Assembly (NCBI RefSeq): GCF_002245655.1
Contig: NZ_NOIH01000014.1
Span: forward strand, 1-64,000
From: Thauera propionica
GTDB taxonomy: Bacteria; Pseudomonadota; Gammaproteobacteria; Burkholderiales; Rhodocyclaceae
Reading direction: 5' to 3'
Length of the DNA stretch: 64,000 bases
The notes under the pieces are model-generated. The model did not search any database and was not told where the DNA came from. It saw nothing but the letters and a program-made list of their open reading frames with translations. Below, piece after piece: positions 9,212 through 48,342 of the stretch. The stretch's first letter is position 1. Each line of letters starts with the position of its first letter. Position numbers and translations under genes: made by a program.

Positions 9212-9676
9212 ATGCCTGATTACGCGCCTCACAGCCATCCTCACCCGAGCGCCCGCGACCTCATTGCCGCCCACGGCGGTCGCGTTACGCGCACGCGTAT
9301 CGCGGTCATCGAGACGCTGCAGGCCGCTCAGCATCCGCTGTCGCACGACGAGATCGGCGCCGCACTGGCGGCAGCCGACATCGCTCACGACCGCGTCACG
9401 CTTTACCGCGCGCTCGACTGGCTGGTCGAGCAGGGCATCGCCCAGCGCATCGCCGGCGGCGAACGCGCATGGCGCTTCGAGATCCGCCACGACGGCGCGC
9501 ACCGCCACGCCCATTTCCACTGCGACCGCTGTGGCCAGATCCTGTGCCTCGAGGAGGTCCCAACCGAGACCAGCCCGGCACTGCCTGCGGGCTTCGAGCT
9601 GGACCGTACCGAACTGGTTCTCCATGGCGCCTGCGCCGACTGCGGACGACAGGGCGCAAAGGCCGGCACGCGATGA
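9212..9676 (+). CDS. zur: Zinc uptake regulator Zur (Fur family)
   Basis: A 154-residue repressor. The N-terminal winged helix (about 15-90) contains the recognition region HDRVTLYRALDWLVEQG. The dimerisation half contains HRHAHFHCDRCGQILCLEE and a C-terminal CADCG, which form the structural Cys4 zinc site and the regulatory His sites typical of Zur/Fur. Zur binds DNA when loaded with zinc and represses uptake genes. An ATG 36 bases upstream (9176) lies inside the operator palindrome, so I chose 9212. It leads the operon zur, His-rich peptide, znuC, znuB, znuA, and probably represses itself through the palindrome at 9168-9184. Confidence 0.93.
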   Translation: MPDYAPHSHPHPSARDLIAAHGGRVTRTRIAVIETLQAAQHPLSHDEIGAALAAADIAHDRVTLYRALDWLVEQGIAQRIAGGERAWRFEIRHDGAHRHAHFHCDRCGQILCLEEVPTETSPALPAGFELDRTELVLHGACADCGRQGAKAGTR

Positions 9677-25547: not shown

Positions 25548-25964
25548 TCAGCCGCGCTTGCCGCGCACCCGGATGATCACGTCGACCTGCTCGAGTTCGA
25601 TGCCCTCGGGCAGATGCGGCACGCCGACGACGGTGAGTTCGTCCGCCGCGACATCGCGCACTTCACCGGTATCGACGTCGTAAAGGTGGTAATGCGGGTC
25701 GGTGTTCGAATCGAACACCACCCGGTCCGGATCAACGATCAGTTCGCGTACCAAGTTCTTCTCGCGGAACAGGCGCAGCGTGTTGTAGACCGTGGCGCGG
25801 GAGGTGTCGGGCGCATTGACGCGCACCCGCTCGAGCACCTGATCGGCCGACAGATGCACCGGGCGCGCGAACAGGACGCGTGCAATCTCGATGCGCTGCT
25901 GGGTCACGGGGACGCCGACGCTGCGCAGGCAGGCAATCGCGTCTTGAGTGCTATGTAGGTTCAT
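25548..25964 (-). CDS. Irr-like Fur-family regulator
   Basis: A 138-residue Fur-family protein starting MNLHSTQDAIACLRSVGVPVTQQRIEIARVLF. The winged helix includes TSRATVYNTLRLFREKNLVREL. The metal region reads DPHYHLYDVDTGEV, and no CxxC pair of the Fur/Zur/PerR structural zinc site is present, as in Irr-type members. Irr proteins respond to haem or iron status rather than Zn/Fe binding at Cys4 sites. It is adjacent to a cytochrome c peroxidase gene whose promoter holds an Irr-type palindrome, and its own leader carries a matching half-site, so it probably controls both. PerR-like peroxide sensing is an alternative. Confidence 0.82.
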   Translation of the reverse strand: MNLHSTQDAIACLRSVGVPVTQQRIEIARVLFARPVHLSADQVLERVRVNAPDTSRATVYNTLRLFREKNLVRELIVDPDRVVFDSNTDPHYHLYDVDTGEVRDVAADELTVVGVPHLPEGIELEQVDVIIRVRGKRG

Positions 25965-42632: not shown

Positions 42633-44693
42633 TCAGAAACTCCCGGAAAGGCTCAAGGTGATGCCGCGGCCCGGCGCCGCCAGCTCCTGGCCCGAGACGC
42701 CGTCGGTCAGGTGCTCGTGGTAGCGCTTGTCGGCCAGGTTGTGCAGGCCGACTGCCAGCGTGGCCGCGTCGAAGGCGCCGACCGCGCCGAAACGCCAGCC
42801 CAGCTCGGCGTCGGCGGTGACGAAGCCGGAGGTCGCGTCCTCGGTGCCATTGGAGAACTTCGTCGCGATGCGATCCTGCTCGGCAACCGCGCGCAACTGC
42901 GCGCGCCAGTAGAAGCCGCGCTCGGCCGGCTGGCCGATGCCCAGTGTCAGCTCGGGTGCCGGCATCTGGTACAGCGGCTCGTCGTCCTGATGGTTCTTGC
43001 CACGCAACCAGGTGAAGCCGGCATCGGCGACGTAGGCGCCCACTGGCGCGCTGAGACTGCCTTCGACGCCGTAGATCGTGACCTTGTCGAGGTTCTCGGT
43101 GCGCTTGAGCGGCAGTCCCGTGCCCGGATGGGACGCACCGGTGATGCGTCCGGCGATGTAGTCGTCAATCCGCGTGTAGAAGGCCGCCAGCTGGTAGTTC
43201 AGCCCGGCACCTGCGCCCTTGAGGCCGAGTTCGAAGCTGGTCGAGACTTCCGGGTCGAGTTGCGGGTTGCCGACGTGGTAGTAGCCGTCGCCACGCGCCG
43301 AATCCTCGAAGCGCTCACGCATGTCCGCGGCGCGGTAGGCGCGGCCGACGTTGGCGTAGGCGTTGAGGTTGTCGGTGAGGGGATGGACCGCCCCGAGCGA
43401 CCACGACAGGTTGTTGTCCGTGCTGTCCAGGCCGGTCGTCTGGGCCGACGGCCCCGTCCCCTTCTGCGCCGCGTCACCGCTGACGCGGTCGTAGCGCAGT
43501 CCGGCAACGATGCGGGTGGCGCCAAGCGCGAACTCGTCCTGCACGAACACGCCCACCGCCTCGATCTCGCCATCCGAGAACGGATCGTTGCGCACGTTGT
43601 TGTTGAAGAACGGCGCGTTGTTGTCCATGTAGCGCTCGGGATCGCCCTTCATGCGCCAGGTTTCGGCCCCGACCGTCAGCAGATGATCCGAGCCGACCGG
43701 GAACACGTACTTGGCGCGCGCGCCGTCGGTCGTGAAGGAGACGTCGTTGCGCACGTAGTCGCGACCGAGGTTTTCGCCGCGGGCACGGATCTGGCGGAAC
43801 ACTTCCTGGCGATAGATCTCGGCCGACAACTGCCCTTCGCCGAGCTTCGCATCGACGCCCAGTTCGTAGAGCTCGCGGCGCTGCTCGGGCGAATGGATGG
43901 TCGCCACGCCGAGCGGACGCGGAATGCCCGCGCCGGTGCGGGCCGAGCCCGGATACCACACGTCCTCGTCCTCATGACGCTGCAGATTCAGACGCAGGCT
44001 GACATCGTCGGTCAGGCGATGACGATACTTGGCCAGCAGGGTGTCGGACTGGTAGCCAGTCCGGTCCTCGCGCCCGTCGGGGCTGCGGTAGTCATCCACG
44101 TCGCGCCCGGCCACACCCAGCACCAGCGCGTGATCGGCGTTCGAACGCTGCACCAGCAGCGCACCGGCCACGCCCTTGTCGACACTGCTGAAGCGCACGC
44201 CGGCACGGCCGCCCATGCACTCCTCCGCGGTAAAGGCGGCCTCGGGCGTGAGCAGGTTGACGACCCCGCCCATCGCACCGCTGCCATGCAGCACCGAGCC
44301 CGGCCCCTTGACGACCTCGACACGGTCGAGCAGCCCGAGATCCATGAAGGACGCGATCGCCCCCTGAGGCTGGGCCGAGTTCACACGCAGGCCATCGACC
44401 ATGACGACGACGCTTTCCTTCTTGAGGCCGCGCAGCACCGGGTTCTGTCCCCAGGCACCGTCGGACTGGGTCGCCAGCCCCGGCTTGCCTCGCAACAGAT
44501 CACCGACGACCGTGGCGCCCGCCGTGGCCGGACGCAGGACCTCGATCGCCTGAGGTGTCTCCTGCACGTCGGCGGCGTAGCCTTTGGCGGTCACAACCTG
44601 CTCGCCGAGCACGGTTTCACCTGCGGCGAGCAGGGATGGTGCGAAAGAGACACCCAGCAGTGCCAACGCCATTGCGCGCATGCGCAGTTCCAT
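42633..44693 (-). CDS. TonB-dependent outer-membrane receptor in NnrS/ABC operon
   Basis: A 686-residue receptor. Start MELRMRAMALALLGVSF with GGAG at correct spacing; an ATG four codons upstream and a frame to 44789 are alternatives. Signal peptide to about residue 23, TonB box GEQVVTAKG, plug with VVMVDGLRVNSAQPQG and VEVVKGPGSVLHGSGAMGGVVN, barrel ending LSLSGSF. Overall layout resembles haem/copper-type receptors rather than ferric-siderophore ones. It is the first gene of an operon with an ABC importer and nnrS, behind an FNR box and a Fur-like box, so a metal or metal chelate needed under denitrifying conditions is likely (inference). Confidence 0.9.
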   Translation of the reverse strand: MELRMRAMALALLGVSFAPSLLAAGETVLGEQVVTAKGYAADVQETPQAIEVLRPATAGATVVGDLLRGKPGLATQSDGAWGQNPVLRGLKKESVVVMVDGLRVNSAQPQGAIASFMDLGLLDRVEVVKGPGSVLHGSGAMGGVVNLLTPEAAFTAEECMGGRAGVRFSSVDKGVAGALLVQRSNADHALVLGVAGRDVDDYRSPDGREDRTGYQSDTLLAKYRHRLTDDVSLRLNLQRHEDEDVWYPGSARTGAGIPRPLGVATIHSPEQRRELYELGVDAKLGEGQLSAEIYRQEVFRQIRARGENLGRDYVRNDVSFTTDGARAKYVFPVGSDHLLTVGAETWRMKGDPERYMDNNAPFFNNNVRNDPFSDGEIEAVGVFVQDEFALGATRIVAGLRYDRVSGDAAQKGTGPSAQTTGLDSTDNNLSWSLGAVHPLTDNLNAYANVGRAYRAADMRERFEDSARGDGYYHVGNPQLDPEVSTSFELGLKGAGAGLNYQLAAFYTRIDDYIAGRITGASHPGTGLPLKRTENLDKVTIYGVEGSLSAPVGAYVADAGFTWLRGKNHQDDEPLYQMPAPELTLGIGQPAERGFYWRAQLRAVAEQDRIATKFSNGTEDATSGFVTADAELGWRFGAVGAFDAATLAVGLHNLADKRYHEHLTDGVSGQELAAPGRGITLSLSGSF

Positions 44694-44767
44694 GAACAAC
44701 TCCATCGAGTAGTCGAGCTGGCTGGCGACGGCTGGCTTGCCCGGGATGATTCGGATCAGGTGGGACA

Positions 44768-44809
44768 ACTTTACTTGAACGCGAATCATTCCTATTTGAT
44801 TTCAATCAA
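44768..44809 (-). promoter_or_regulatory. FNR/DNR class II promoter with overlapping Fur-like site
   Basis: TTGATTTCAATCAA at 44796-44809 is a perfect FNR-family box. Reading the minus strand, a -10 element TAAAGT (44773-44768) follows at the exact class II spacing. Between them lies GGAATGATTCGCGTTC, which matches about 10 of 19 Fur positions including AATGATT. This suggests activation at low oxygen or by NO, and repression by iron-loaded Fur, of the TonB/ABC/nnrS operon. Confidence 0.8.
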
Positions 44810-44834: not shown

Positions 44835-44897
44835 TCACTTCTTGAATCTCGGGCAGCCCTTGCAGGGCTTGTCCTTCTTGCAGCACTTCTTGCTCAT
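44835..44897 (-). CDS. 20-residue cysteine- and lysine-rich peptide
   Basis: A very short frame encodes MSKKCCKKDK followed by PCKGCPRFKK, then TGA. GGAG stands six bases before the ATG, the best-spaced ribosome-binding site in this operon. Cysteines at 5, 6, 12 and 15 (CC-x5-C-x2-C) plus nine lysines suggest a metal- or cluster-binding peptide that also contacts RNA or membranes. It lies 40 bases after the second small helical protein and so probably ends the Fur-controlled S4-paralog operon. I cannot name a family with certainty. An in-frame ATG four codons upstream (44909) is possible. Conservation in relatives would settle whether it is translated. Confidence 0.65.
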   Translation of the reverse strand: MSKKCCKKDKPCKGCPRFKK

Positions 44898-44937
44898 CAG
44901 GATCTCCATAACGGTCCCGCCCCAGGCCGGAACCGTC

Positions 44938-45237
44938 TCAGTGCGAAACGCGCGAGGCTTCAACCGCTGGCTGTTCGCTCAGCAAGGCATACGCACGCCA
45001 GTCCTCCACGAGGCTGGACGCGCACTCGCGCACCTCGGCGGCAATGCGCTGATCGGCGCCGATCACCTGCAGATGATCGACAATGGCCCGTGCAAGCGCG
45101 GGGGACTGCCGCGCCGGAAAGCGCGACAGCAGCTGAAGCACGGCAGCCAGCGCCAGCTCGGGTCGCGTACCGTAGTGCGGCGCCGACTCGCGCGAGGCAC
45201 TGAAGTCCTGGCCGCAGCAGGGAGGCAGGCCGCTCAC
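44938..45237 (-). CDS. Small helical protein downstream of S4 paralog
   Basis: A 99-residue protein starting at a GTG that overlaps the S4 stop (GTGA). Predicted almost all-helical: PELALAAVLQLLSRFP, SPALARAIVDHLQVIG, QRIAAEVRECASSLVEDWRA. N-terminal CCGQ. No family recognised. Its helix pattern lines up with that of the 99-residue protein on the other side of the S4 gene, suggesting they are distant copies. Translational coupling to the S4 paralog supports reality; the plus-strand frame 44842-45252 over the same DNA is judged a shadow. Confidence 0.65.
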   Translation of the reverse strand: MSGLPPCCGQDFSASRESAPHYGTRPELALAAVLQLLSRFPARQSPALARAIVDHLQVIGADQRIAAEVRECASSLVEDWRAYALLSEQPAVEASRVSH

Positions 45238-45845
45238 AGCCGCACCGCGTAGTATTCGACGACCTGCTGGACGTCGACCGGGAACGGGACCTCGTCGGGC
45301 GACGGTGTGCGCGTGACGCTGGCAGCGATGGCTGCTTCATCGAAGCTGAGCCACTCCGGACGCGTCAGTGCAGGCTCGCCGATCGTCTCGACGACGAAGG
45401 GAATTCGGCGGCCACGCTCGGTGAGCTGGATGCGGTCGCCCGGCTTGATGCGGATCGAGGGGATATTCACCGAGCGGCCGTTGAGCAGCACGTGCTTGTG
45501 GCGCACGAGCTGGCGCGCCGCCACCGCAGTGGGGGCGAAACCGGCGCGGAACACGAAGTTGTCGAGGCGACGCTCGAGCAGTTCGAGCAGCTTGTCGCCG
45601 GTCGGTCCACGGTCGCGCTTGGCCTCGCGGAACAGGCGCTGGATCTGCTTTTCGCCGAGGCCATAGTTGAAGCGCAGCTTCTGCTTCTCGATCAACTGCA
45701 CGCCAAAACCCGACTTGCGTTTCGGGCGCTGGCCGTGCTGGCCCGGCGGGTAGTTGCGCTCACCGAGGGGCTTGCGCGACAGGCCGGGCAGTTCGGTGCC
45801 GAGCGCACGCATCACTTTCAGACGGGGGCCGGTGTAACGGGACAA
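45234..45845 (-). CDS. Cysteine-free ribosomal protein S4 paralog
   Basis: A 203-residue S4. It begins at a TTG (MSRYTGPRLKVMRALG) preceded by GGAG six bases away. NYPPGQHGQRPKRKSGFGVQLIEKQKLRFNYGL and the S4 RNA-binding domain ERRLDNFVFRAGFAPTAVAARQLVRHKHVLLNGRSVNIPS are clear. S4 binds 16S rRNA early in small-subunit assembly and can repress its own operon. It contains no cysteine, its N-terminus differs from the usual betaproteobacterial form and looks more like cyanobacterial S4, and it is not in a ribosomal-protein operon, so it is probably a second copy. Placed behind a Fur-type palindrome. Confidence 0.88.
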   Translation of the reverse strand: MSRYTGPRLKVMRALGTELPGLSRKPLGERNYPPGQHGQRPKRKSGFGVQLIEKQKLRFNYGLGEKQIQRLFREAKRDRGPTGDKLLELLERRLDNFVFRAGFAPTAVAARQLVRHKHVLLNGRSVNIPSIRIKPGDRIQLTERGRRIPFVVETIGEPALTRPEWLSFDEAAIAASVTRTPSPDEVPFPVDVQQVVEYYAVRL

Positions 45846-45860
45846 GATGATCTCCTTCGA

Positions 45861-46160
45861 TCAGTTCGGGAATGAAGCGGTTGAAACGCAGCCGCGCGAA
45901 GAGCGCGAGCGAAGCCGACTCGAAGTCGAGGCATCGCCGACTGCGTTCGCGCCGCCGAGATGTCGCGGATGGGATATCGCCTGGTCGAGTTGTTCGCACG
46001 ATGTCATCAGCTCCTGATCCAGGGTGCTGGCGTCAAGGCAACGCAGCAGCAAGCCCGCCTGGTGCGCAGCACGGGGACAGCCGGTATCGAGGTAGCGCGA
46101 AACGTGCATCAGCACGCCGGCCAGCAGACGGGTCTGCTCGAGGGTCGAGTCCGTTGCCAT
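45861..46160 (-). CDS. Small helical protein upstream of S4 paralog
   Basis: A 99-residue protein starting MATDSTLEQTRLLAGVLMHVSRYLDTGC with two to three helices (about 5-22, 28-45, 48-62). The last 35 residues are low-complexity Ser/Arg and may not fold. No family recognised. It is the first gene after the palindrome at 46177-46193, and its stop overlaps the ribosome-binding region of the S4 gene. The helix spacing resembles the 99-residue protein after S4. Confidence 0.65.
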   Translation of the reverse strand: MATDSTLEQTRLLAGVLMHVSRYLDTGCPRAAHQAGLLLRCLDASTLDQELMTSCEQLDQAISHPRHLGGANAVGDASTSSRLRSRSSRGCVSTASFPN

Positions 46161-46176
46161 GGAACACCTCTCTTAG

Positions 46177-46193
46177 TTGCGAATGATTCGCAA
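46177..46193. promoter_or_regulatory. Fur-type perfect palindrome before S4-paralog operon
   Basis: TTGCGAATGATTCGCAA is a perfect 8-1-8 palindrome 17 bases ahead of the first small gene. GAATGATTC is the core of many betaproteobacterial Fur sites, and the operon lies back to back with feoB, which has its own Fur box. Confidence 0.75.
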
Positions 46194-46301
46194 TATCATC
46201 GATGCACCGTAGCTTGTCAACAAGTCACGAAGAATCGAGCCCCGCCGTCGCTGCCCGCCGACGCACCAAATGCCGGTGCGGGCCCGGACCGAGCGCGAGA
46301 C

Positions 46302-46342
46302 TTGAGATAGATCAGGAAATAAAAAATGAGATCCATTATCAT
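46302..46342 (+). promoter_or_regulatory. feoB promoter: degenerate FNR box and Fur box
   Basis: TTGAGATAGATCAG (46302-46315) matches the FNR consensus at 8 of 10 positions. A -10 element TATCAT (46337-46342) lies within one base of class II spacing. A strong Fur box, AAAAATGAGATCCATTATC (46322-46340), matches 14 of 19 consensus positions and overlaps the -10. FNR activation and Fur repression of feo are known in E. coli. Confidence 0.8.
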
Positions 46343-46380: not shown

Positions 46381-48342
46381 ATGAATCACGCCGTCTCGCT
46401 CGCTTCTCCATCCGGCGCCCTGCGCACCCTCGCCCTCGTCGGCCATCCCAATGTCGGCAAGTCGGTGCTGTTTCACCGCCTCACCGGCACCTACGTCACG
46501 GTGTCGAACTACCCTGGCACCACGGTCGAGGTATCGCGTGCCGCGCCGCGCTTCGACCGCGAGGCCTCGCTGCTGGACACCCCGGGCGTGCTGGCCCTGC
46601 CCTCGCGCAGCGACGACGAGCGCGCCACCATGCGCGCGCTCCTCAATGAGGACATGCGCACGCTGATCCAGGTCGGCGACGCCAAGAACCTGCGCCGCAC
46701 GCTGAACCTGACCGCCCTGCTCGCCGAACTGGGCGTGCCGATGGTGATGGCACTGAACATGACCGACGAGGCCAAGGCCCGCGGCGTGCATGTCGACGCC
46801 GCCGCACTGGGCGAGACCCTCGGTGTGCCGGTCGTCGCCACGGTCGCCACCGGCGGCGAAGGCGTCGCCGCGCTGACCGACGCCCTGCCGCACGCCGCCG
46901 TGCCCGCCCCGTTGCTGCGCTACGACCCGGTGCTCGAGCGCGACATCGTGCGCATCGAACAGCTGATCCTCGGCACCTGCCCGCATCCGCGCCTGGCCGC
47001 GCGCGGGCTGGCCATCCTCGCCATCGGCCGCGACCCCGAGGTCGAGGCCTGGCTGGCCGCGCAGCCCGGTAGCGAGCCGCTGCGCGCGACGCTTGCCGAA
47101 CTCACCGCCGCCATCGGCCGCGACTCGCTGCCCGCACGCCTCGCGCGCGAGCGCGGCGGCGCGGCCGAGGCGCTCGCGCGCACCGTCACCCAGCAGGCTG
47201 GCGGCAAGGACCGCACGCTGTCGATGCTGCTCGGCCGCGTCGCTGTGCACCGCCTGTGGGGCTGGCCGATGCTGCTCGGCGTGCTCTATCTCGTCTATCT
47301 CTTCGTCGGCGACTTTGGCGCCAGCACCCTGGTCGGGTTGCTCGAAGAAGACTTCTTCGGCGAGGTGCTGAATCCGGCGGTCACTGACTTCGTACACAGC
47401 CACATCTCCACGCCCTGGCTCGCCGACCTCTTCGTCGGCGAGTACGGCCTGTGGACGATGGGCATGACCTACGCGCTGGCGCTGATCCTGCCGATCGTCA
47501 CCACCTTCTTCCTCGCCTTCGGCGTGCTGGAGGACTCCGGCTACTTCTCGCGCCTGTCCGTGATCGCCAACCGTCTGTTCGCCGCCATCGGGCTGAACGG
47601 CCGTGCGGTGCTGCCGATGGTGCTGGGCCTGGGCTGCGTGACCATGGCCACGCTCACCACCCGCATCCTGCACACCCCGCGCGAACGCCTCATCACCATT
47701 TACCTGATGGCACTGGCGATTCCCTGCTCGGCGCAGCTGGGCGTGGTGCTCGGCCTGCTGGGCGGCATCTCCTTCGGTGCCACGGTGATCTGGGTCGCGG
47801 CGATCGTCCTGGTGCTGCTGTTCACCGGCTGGCTGGCGAGCAAGGTCGTGCCCGGCCGGCGCGTGCCGCTGATCACCGAGCTGCCGCCGATGCGCATGCC
47901 GGTGCTGGGCAACGTGCTGAAGAAGACCGGCGGGCGGCTCAAGTGGTACCTGATCGAGGTCATCCCGCTGTTCCTGATCGGTACGCTGATCATGTTCGTG
48001 CTCGACCGCAGCGGCGCGCTGCCGTGGATCATCGAGGCCGGCAAGCCGCTGGTGGTGGGCTGGCTCGGCCTGCCGCCCGAGGCCAGCGCCGCGTTCGTGA
48101 TGGGCTTCCTGCGCCGCGACTTCGGCGCCAGCGGCCTGTTCGCGCTGCAGGGCGAGCTGTCGATGGTGCAGGCGGTGGTCGGCATGGTCACGATCACCCT
48201 GTTCGTGCCCTGCATCGCCAGCCTGATGATGATCGTCAAGGAACAGGGGATGAAGGTCGCCGCGCTGATGCTGGCGATGATCATCCCCACCGCCTTCCTC
48301 GTTGGCGGTCTGCTCAACCACGGCCTGCGGCTGTTCTTCTGA
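46381..48342 (+). CDS. feoB: Ferrous iron transporter FeoB
   Basis: A 653-residue protein: N-terminal G domain (about 15-180) with G1 GHPNVGKS (21-28), G2/switch NYPGTTVEV, G3 DTPG and G4 NMTD; then the membrane domain with two inverted FeoB gate repeats (GVLEDSGYFSRLSVIANR; LGCVTMATLTTRIL; FMGFLRRDFGASGLF). Shorter than E. coli FeoB (773). It imports ferrous iron at low oxygen. The gene comes before feoA, the reverse of the classic order, and no FeoC is present. Ribosome-binding site is weak. Confidence 0.96.
   Translation: MNHAVSLASPSGALRTLALVGHPNVGKSVLFHRLTGTYVTVSNYPGTTVEVSRAAPRFDREASLLDTPGVLALPSRSDDERATMRALLNEDMRTLIQVGDAKNLRRTLNLTALLAELGVPMVMALNMTDEAKARGVHVDAAALGETLGVPVVATVATGGEGVAALTDALPHAAVPAPLLRYDPVLERDIVRIEQLILGTCPHPRLAARGLAILAIGRDPEVEAWLAAQPGSEPLRATLAELTAAIGRDSLPARLARERGGAAEALARTVTQQAGGKDRTLSMLLGRVAVHRLWGWPMLLGVLYLVYLFVGDFGASTLVGLLEEDFFGEVLNPAVTDFVHSHISTPWLADLFVGEYGLWTMGMTYALALILPIVTTFFLAFGVLEDSGYFSRLSVIANRLFAAIGLNGRAVLPMVLGLGCVTMATLTTRILHTPRERLITIYLMALAIPCSAQLGVVLGLLGGISFGATVIWVAAIVLVLLFTGWLASKVVPGRRVPLITELPPMRMPVLGNVLKKTGGRLKWYLIEVIPLFLIGTLIMFVLDRSGALPWIIEAGKPLVVGWLGLPPEASAAFVMGFLRRDFGASGLFALQGELSMVQAVVGMVTITLFVPCIASLMMIVKEQGMKVAALMLAMIIPTAFLVGGLLNHGLRLFF

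What the first reader, a model, noticed from the sequence alone, without database searches (positions are those of the whole stretch)
44835..46193. Fur-controlled operon of two small helical proteins, a cysteine-free S4 paralog and a 20-residue Cys/Lys-rich peptide
Seen directly: a perfect palindrome TTGCGAATGATTCGCAA, then four minus-strand genes with tight coupling (stop/ribosome-site overlap, GTGA overlap, 40-base gap). The S4 has no cysteine, a TTG start and an N-terminus unlike the usual betaproteobacterial form. The two 99-residue proteins on its flanks have matching helix spacing. The last frame encodes a peptide with cysteines at 5, 6, 12 and 15 and nine lysines, with an ideal GGAG site. 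Known: zinc-free ribosomal protein copies are Zur-controlled in many bacteria; an iron-linked S4 copy is not something I know. Inference: an iron-starvation ribosome remodelling or RNA-binding module, with the peptide binding metal.
Basis: partly seen in the sequence, partly recalled or inferred. Interest (0 to 1): 0.9.

Follow-up and report, generated by a model that had tools for sequence, protein, structure and literature searches.

The report
Iron-controlled spare ribosomal protein S4
This bacterium carries a spare copy of a core ribosome protein that lacks the metal-binding cysteines of its main copy and sits behind what looks like an iron switch, which suggests that cells swap an iron-sulfur part of the ribosome for an iron-free one when iron runs out.

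Summary
A promoter overlapping a Fur-type palindrome (46177-46193) precedes ORF1, a cysteine-free S4, ORF3 and a 20-residue peptide. The genome's other S4, in the alpha operon, has the four-cysteine (C+) site that holds [4Fe-4S] in T. thermophilus (literature). The spare is a C-(IV) S4, a known subtype whose paralogs had no Zur site in a 2009 survey.

New here: the spare is Fur-linked. A box lies upstream in 13 of 13 carriers of the genus and, counting weak and distant ones, in 16 of 29 other betaproteobacterial loci, often beside feoB, hemP-tonB-exbBD or TonB receptors. Of 17 carriers in 399 order genomes, 13 have C+ as main S4, 4 no other S4 found, 0 the cysteine-poor C-(I). In the Methylobacillus group it is the only S4 found, and the box lies after it. 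ORF1 and ORF3 belong to one new small helical family found near the regulated copy. The peptide is conserved but is not tied to S4.

Most likely: Fur-controlled, iron-sparing replacement of an Fe-S ribosomal protein. Expression, cluster in this clade and incorporation are untested.

The parts
46177..46193 (.). Fur-type palindrome TTGCGAATGATTCGCAA, proposed operator of the S4 operon
   Evidence: a box of 14/15 or more is upstream in 13 of 13 genus loci with the S4 copy
46192..46220 (-). sigma-70-like promoter (TTGACA - 17 - GATATT) overlapping the Fur palindrome
   Evidence: consensus match only; 1 found, 0.2 expected
45861..46160 (-). ORF1, 99 aa, small helical protein (group A), detected in 11 of 13 genus S4 loci
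45234..45845 (-). cysteine-free C-(IV) ribosomal protein S4 paralog, 203 aa, TTG start
   Evidence: TIGR01017 231.6 bits, cut-off 177.2
44938..45237 (-). ORF3, 99 aa, small helical protein (group B), GTG start overlapping the S4 stop, detected in 13 of 13 genus S4 loci
44835..44897 (-). 20-aa Cys/Lys-rich peptide MSKKCCKKDKPCKGCPRFKK; accessory, not tied to S4
46327..46341 (.). second Fur-type site (14 of 15), in the intergenic region on the side of divergent feoB
46381..48342 (+). FeoB, ferrous iron transporter (context)
   Evidence: TIGR00437 363.7 bits, cut-off 315.65
42633..44789 (-). TonB-dependent receptor, haemin-receptor-like but below the TIGR01785 cut-off (context; probable true start near 44690, by eye)

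Best explanation
An iron-starvation operon that makes a metal-free copy of ribosomal protein S4. With iron, Fur binds the palindrome over the -10 element and silences it, and ribosomes are built with the alpha-operon S4, whose four cysteines probably hold a [4Fe-4S] cluster. Without iron, Fur leaves and the cysteine-free C-(IV) S4 is made and takes the S4 place in new 30S subunits, so ribosome assembly no longer needs an Fe-S cluster. The small helical proteins made from the same mRNA probably help the regulated copy: delivery, exchange, or dealing with cluster-free main S4. Shown here: two S4 genes, the C+ motif of one and no cysteine in the other, the box, its overlap with a promoter-like site, conservation, and that this S4 clade can serve as the only S4 found in a genome. 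Inferred: Fur binding, the cluster in this clade, incorporation into ribosomes, and the helical proteins' role. The peptide is an iron-regulon neighbour, not a core part.
For: (1) Main S4 (rpsM-rpsK-rpsD-rpoA-rplQ) has C-x2-C-x13-C-x4-C aligned position by position with T. thermophilus S4, which binds an Fe-S cluster (passages of PMC10450194; PMC11791143). (2) Fur box >=14/15 within 700 bp upstream: 13 of 13 genus loci against 2 of 415 windows elsewhere in the same loci; 11 of 29 other beta loci against 23 of 770. Two more have one at -1186, and three, N. europaea included, a weak 13/15 just before the first small gene. (3) Where ORF1 was not detected (L042, L045) the box sits directly before S4, at -95 and -114. 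(4) Iron-uptake neighbours in many loci: feoB, hemP, tonB-exbB-exbD, TonB receptors. (5) Of 377 order genomes with a main S4 found, 13 of 194 with C+ and 0 of 183 with C-(I)-like carry the copy (p = 2e-4, not corrected for kinship); of 14 named carriers 12 have C+ by score, 0 C-(I). (6) In 3 of 3 Methylobacillus-group loci this S4 is the only one found, the alpha operon has no rpsD, no box or helical gene lies upstream, and a Fur box lies 738-808 bases after the S4 start, before p79-tonB-exbBD; these sequences nest among Fur-boxed copies (98/96). (7) S4 dN/dS 0.05-0.11. (8) A Fur above its NCBIfam cut-off is in the genome.
Against: No expression, binding, metal or ribosome data. The cluster is known only from T. 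thermophilus; beta C+ S4 could hold zinc. 13 of 29 other-beta loci have no box that I counted (L052, L116, L117, L122, L124, L127, L132, L133, L136, L139, L141, L144, L145): L124 has a 13/15 at 165 bases before its first gene, L139 is cut at 285 bases, some may end longer operons. The three 13/15 boxes are weak alone: 7, 5 and 14 of 60 shuffles reach 13. The 7 Myxococcales/Deltaproteobacteria loci show no helical gene and one of 7 a marginal box, so iron control is not general for C-(IV) S4. Only 13 of 29 genus genomes have the copy. C+ and C-(I) are clades and the Methylobacillus case is one event, so independent evidence is thin. A term search in the text of a paper on the N. europaea Fur homolog found no use of 'ribosomal'.
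Confidence: 0.62

Rival explanations
1. The S4 copy works off the ribosome under iron starvation, as an RNA-binding regulator (for example of the alpha-operon leader or of rRNA transcription), with the helical proteins as partners.
For: S4 proteins are known regulators (recalled: alpha-operon autoregulation and antitermination in E. coli); it is probably co-transcribed with uncharacterised helical proteins that were not found where S4 is the sole copy.
Against: The same clade supplies the only S4 found in the Methylobacillus group; S4 is conserved at dN/dS 0.05-0.11 and passes the TIGR01017 equivalog cut-off.
Confidence: 0.15
2. The main C+ S4 carries zinc in these bacteria, and the spare S4 is a general metal-limitation or transferred copy that fell under Fur through its neighbours.
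For: Chen et al. 2009 treat C+ S4 as zinc-binding; metal-free copies of other r-proteins are Zur-controlled (quotes this).
Against: Fur-type boxes recur at the copy in several families; Chen et al. found no Zur site at the S4 paralogs of 26 genomes, N. europaea among them; the Thermus site holds [4Fe-4S].
Confidence: 0.13
3. The helical proteins are the working part of the haem/iron-uptake operon and S4 is a passenger under weak use.
For: Helical genes were detected in 25 of 29 other-beta loci, next to hemP or tonB in several.
Against: S4 is far better conserved than the helical proteins; S4 with a Fur box but no detected helical gene occurs (L128, from a genome 78% complete).
Confidence: 0.06
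4. The box is not used by Fur; the operon is constitutive or answers another Fur-family protein.
For: Three Fur-family genes in the genome, two of them in the window; no binding data.
Against: Box type, promoter overlap, conservation and iron-uptake neighbours.
Confidence: 0.08

Closest known systems
C-(IV) ribosomal protein S4 paralogs (Chen, Roberts, Luthey-Schulten 2009, PMC3087516)
   Same: Same subtype: no cysteines, Leu15 and Gly21 signatures, outside the alpha operon beside a C+ copy; N. europaea and Methylobacillus flagellatus are in that paper.
   Different: The paper found no regulator for these copies (no Zur site). Fur-type boxes, iron-uptake linkage, the helical family and the box placed after S4 in sole-copy genomes are new here.
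Zur-controlled zinc-free paralogs of L31, L36, L33, S14, S18
   Same: Metal-regulated swap of a cysteine-bearing ribosomal protein for a cysteine-free copy.
   Different: Fur-type instead of Zur operator, iron (probably Fe-S) instead of zinc, S4 instead of the Zn-ribbon proteins.
Fur-controlled iron-sparing replacements (e.g. flavodoxin for ferredoxin; recalled)
   Same: Iron-free protein made under iron starvation in place of an Fe-S protein.
   Different: Acts on the ribosome instead of metabolism.
hemP-tonB-exbB-exbD haem-uptake operons
   Same: The paralog sits before such genes in several Methylophilaceae and Methylophilaceae-like genomes.
   Different: A ribosomal protein and a helical protein family as members; the listings of two paper searches pairing hemP or the Fur regulon with S4 showed no such report.

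Membership tests
Bacterial ribosomal protein uS4 (TIGR01017 / PF00163 + PF01479) | Score above the curated cut-off over the whole protein | tested here: met
   TIGR01017 231.6 bits against 177.2; PF00163 78.5 against 23; PF01479 67 against 22.8
Bacterial ribosomal protein uS4 (TIGR01017 / PF00163 + PF01479) | Incorporated in the 30S subunit | not testable with these tools
   Indirect only: the clade gives the only S4 found in 3 Methylobacillus-group genomes
C-(IV) S4 (Chen 2009) | No zinc-site cysteines, no seven-residue indel, Leu/Phe at 15 and Gly/Pro at 21 | tested here: met
   Zero cysteines; L15, G21 read from the translation; N-terminus shorter than the C+ copy before PGQHG, the indel itself not mapped column by column; groups with cyanobacterial and delta C-(IV), away from C+ and C-(I)
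Metal-regulated ribosomal protein paralog (Zur type) | Zur operator upstream | tested here: inconclusive
   No Zur scan was run here; the operator found is of Fur type, and the 2009 survey found no Zur site at S4 paralogs
Metal-regulated ribosomal protein paralog (Zur type) | Second, cysteine-bearing copy in the same genome | tested here: met
   C+ S4 in the alpha operon
Fur regulon | Fur-type operator at the promoter, conserved in relatives | tested here: met
   13 of 13 genus loci; overlaps the only promoter-like site found. Home-made score, no binding
Fur regulon | Fur binding and derepression without iron | not testable with these tools
   No expression or binding data
Fe-S C+ S4 (main copy) | C-x2-C-x13-C-x4-C aligned with T. 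thermophilus S4 | tested here: met
Fe-S C+ S4 (main copy) | [4Fe-4S] cluster bound | not testable with these tools
   Known for T. thermophilus only
Known families for ORF1/ORF3 | Match to a Pfam or NCBIfam model | tested here: not met
   31 members of A5 (ORF3 family) scanned: no family matched more than 2 members; best E 0.0028 in Pfam and 0.0049 in NCBIfam, one member each. Of the ORF1 family only ORF1 itself was scanned: none in Pfam, one at 0.13 in NCBIfam

The most novel reading that the evidence does not exclude
Bacteria can run an iron-sparing ribosome: Fur switches the [4Fe-4S] ribosomal protein uS4 for a cysteine-free paralog when iron is scarce, with a dedicated, apparently undescribed family of small helical proteins that serves only the regulated copy. 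Where the paralog won outright (Methylobacillus), its upstream Fur control and its helper were lost together.
Probability: 0.5. Interest if true: 0.9.

Novelty: new variant of a known kind. Interest (0 to 1): 0.82.

Why it matters
Swapping metal-bearing ribosomal proteins for metal-free copies is known for zinc and Zur. An iron and Fur counterpart would show that the ribosome is part of the iron budget, would explain why C+ S4 has a cysteine-free twin in betaproteobacteria whose regulator a 2009 survey could not find, and would be genetic evidence that C+ S4 carries an Fe-S cluster in ordinary mesophiles. It can be tested in harmless laboratory bacteria.

Tried and rejected
Zur control: not favoured; the operator is of Fur type, and the published Zur search at S4 paralogs was negative. 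No Zur scan was run here.

Peptide as core member of the S4 module: rejected, (G012) and the genome comparison. Outside the genus only one weak match in the 399 order genomes (G343, after a catalase-like frame).

Chance palindrome: as a bare palindrome it would be chance; the case rests on box type, position and conservation.

Known fold for ORF3: Foldseek against the PDB gave no match at E <= 0.001. Weak echoes of UPF0253/YaeP (NCBIfam 0.016 and Pfam 0.043, one member of 31 each; 5h1n, which I recall as a YaeP structure, at E 3.5) were not taken as kinship. ORF1's model was not searched.

Paper searches (held open-access library; listings only unless said). In these listings I saw no paper describing a Fur-controlled S4 copy; the holding is incomplete and long lists were shown in part. 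Seen: PMC3087516 outline, passages and sections 7, 8, 12; passages of PMC10450194, PMC11791143, PMC3050691, PMC9973013.

Full report
What is in the window. On the minus strand, reading from 46220 down, there is a sigma-70-like promoter (TTGACA, 17 bases, GATATT) whose -10 element overlaps the palindrome TTGCGAATGATTCGCAA (46177-46193). Then come ORF1 (45861-46160), an S4 with a TTG start (45234-45845), ORF3 (44938-45237, its GTG overlapping the S4 stop) and a 20-residue peptide (44835-44897). Upstream and divergent is feoB (TIGR00437 above its cut-off) with a second Fur-type site at 46327-46341; downstream is a haemin-receptor-like TonB-dependent receptor. As a bare palindrome the site is within chance (3 in the window, 1-6 in 20 simulations), but as a Fur-type 15-mer it is one of 5 sites scoring 14 or more in 64 kb, with 0-1 in 6 simulations. 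The 15-position score is home-made from a recalled consensus.

The two S4 proteins. The genome has two S4/rpsD-like proteins at E <= 1e-10, among 11 S4-domain matches. The other lies in rpsM-rpsK-rpsD-rpoA-rplQ and carries C-x2-C-x13-C-x4-C, aligned residue by residue with T. thermophilus S4. In T. thermophilus that site holds a [4Fe-4S] cluster (passages in PMC10450194, and PMC11791143). The window S4 has no cysteine, 48% identity to the main copy over residues 27-200, and the C-(IV) signatures of Chen et al. 2009 (sections 7, 8, 12 read). That paper lists C+/C-(IV) pairs in N. europaea, three deltaproteobacteria and a few others, finds C-(IV) alone in Methylobacillus flagellatus, suggests transfer from cyanobacteria for the proteobacterial ones, and found no Zur site at the S4 paralogs of 26 genomes.

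Distribution. 13 of 29 genus genomes (own included) have the paralog, and 17 of 399 sampled genomes of the order (own included, E <= 1e-55). In a sample of 369 genomes of the class, besides the own genome, 3 genomes of one family match at E <= 1e-50; there it is the only S4 found (one PF00163 match in each), with no box of 14/15 within 1400 bases upstream, though one has a 13/15. Main S4 N-termini of the order fall into two score classes with a wide gap: 194 strong (C+), 183 weak (C-(I)-like), 22 not found (one of the weak, G370, belongs to a family that is otherwise strong). Of the 17 carriers, 13 are C+, 2 have no other S4 found, 2 are incomplete genomes (78% and 64%) with none found, 0 are C-(I). 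13 of 194 against 0 of 183 gives p = 2e-4, but the classes are clades, so this counts few independent events. Of 14 named carriers 12 have C+ by score; the other two are Methylobacillus glycogenes and one MAG. One of the 14, Azospira, seems to be a genome already in the order sample. The score classes were checked by reading cysteines in 44 rows: 40 C+ and 4 not.

Iron link. Fur boxes of 14/15 or more lie within 700 bases upstream of S4 in 13 of 13 genus loci, against 2 of 415 windows of the same size elsewhere in these loci. In other betaproteobacteria it is 11 of 29 against 23 of 770. Two more loci, near-duplicates, have one at -1186. Three (Azonexus, N. europaea, Methylophilaceae) have 13/15 within 85 bases of the first small gene, weak alone since 7, 5 and 14 of 60 shuffles reach 13. 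That makes 16 of 29; I counted none in the other 13, of which L124 has a 13/15 farther off and L139 is cut short. Several of the 29 are near-duplicates (L122 and L136 share one contig length, L052 and L133, L121 and L125, L054 and L135). Neighbours are iron-uptake genes in many loci: feoB, hemP, tonB-exbB-exbD, TonB receptors (Pfam); L128, L132 and L133 showed none of the reference genes. In L042 and L045, where ORF1 was not detected, the box is directly before S4. The 7 Myxococcales/Deltaproteobacteria loci showed none of the reference genes and one marginal box.

The natural experiment. In G060, G108 and Methylobacillus glycogenes the alpha operon runs rpsM-rpsK-rpoA-rplQ without rpsD, and the C-(IV) S4 is the only one found. 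The three are close relatives, so this is one event. They nest among Fur-boxed copies, beside G152, G227 and N. europaea (98/96 for the three; 99/94 for the set of six); deeper forks of the C-(IV) tree are unresolved. There is no Fur box within 700 bases upstream and no helical gene found; a box lies 738-808 bases after the S4 start, between S4 and p79-tonB-exbBD. So this clade can be the only S4, and here the sole S4 is not behind the box.

The small helical proteins. ORF1 (group A) and ORF3 (group B) families are distantly homologous (hhalign Prob 86, E 4.8e-6 over 55 columns). Group A or B genes were found near S4 in 25 of 29 other-beta loci (not L052, L128, L132, L133), 0 of 3 sole-copy loci and 0 of 7 Myxococcales/delta loci. 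AlphaFold2 gives a three-helix bundle for ORF3 (pLDDT 79, pTM 0.61) and three helices with a low-confidence tail for ORF1 (pLDDT 70, pTM 0.51). No family matched well, and ORF3's model had no fold match. Their absence where S4 is the sole copy suggests that they serve the regulated situation, not S4 function as such. That is an inference.

The peptide. MSKKCCKKDKPCKGCPRFKK is conserved (15 of 20 positions in 5 variants), with dN/dS 0.10-0.23. It is in 13 of 29 genus genomes, 11 of which also have the S4; 2 S4 carriers (G001, G023) lack it. In G020 it lies about 18 kb from the S4 on the same contig. In G012 it follows its own Fur-type box (15 of 17 positions as the window palindrome) and precedes a TonB receptor, without S4. 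I treat it as an iron-regulon neighbour.

Verdict. What is shown is genetic architecture and its conservation. What is not shown is Fur binding, induction, the cluster in this clade and ribosome incorporation.

Noticed in passing
window 22376, 32155, 32198: Other Fur-type 15-mers scoring 14-15 of 15 in the window; genes there not examined.
   Followed up: no
window 25587-25916 (-) and 9275-9565 (+): Two further Fur-family genes lie in the same window; the one at 9275 belongs to a Zur-like frame, by eye.
   Followed up: partly
L123:p79 (+1034 from S4), L119, L120, L053, L118, L134: A 79-80 aa protein with a CxxC, no Pfam match, between hemP or S4 and tonB-exbBD.
   Followed up: partly
A5 rows, C-termini: Most group B helical proteins end in His, or in Gln, just before the stop; unexplained.
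   Followed up: no
L115 (G343), minus strand near 1550: A longer peptide of the KKCC..D.PCK.CP type follows a catalase-like reading frame (read by eye).
   Followed up: partly
L127, L141 upstream of S4: S4 with its helical gene lies after a frame that looks like the end of a DUF2149-type protein (by eye; name recalled), so a Fur box could sit far upstream.
   Followed up: no
L051 +885, L129 +1005, L141 +787: A long protein of one family follows S4 in three loci; resemblance to DUF2325 proteins is recalled, not tested.
   Followed up: no
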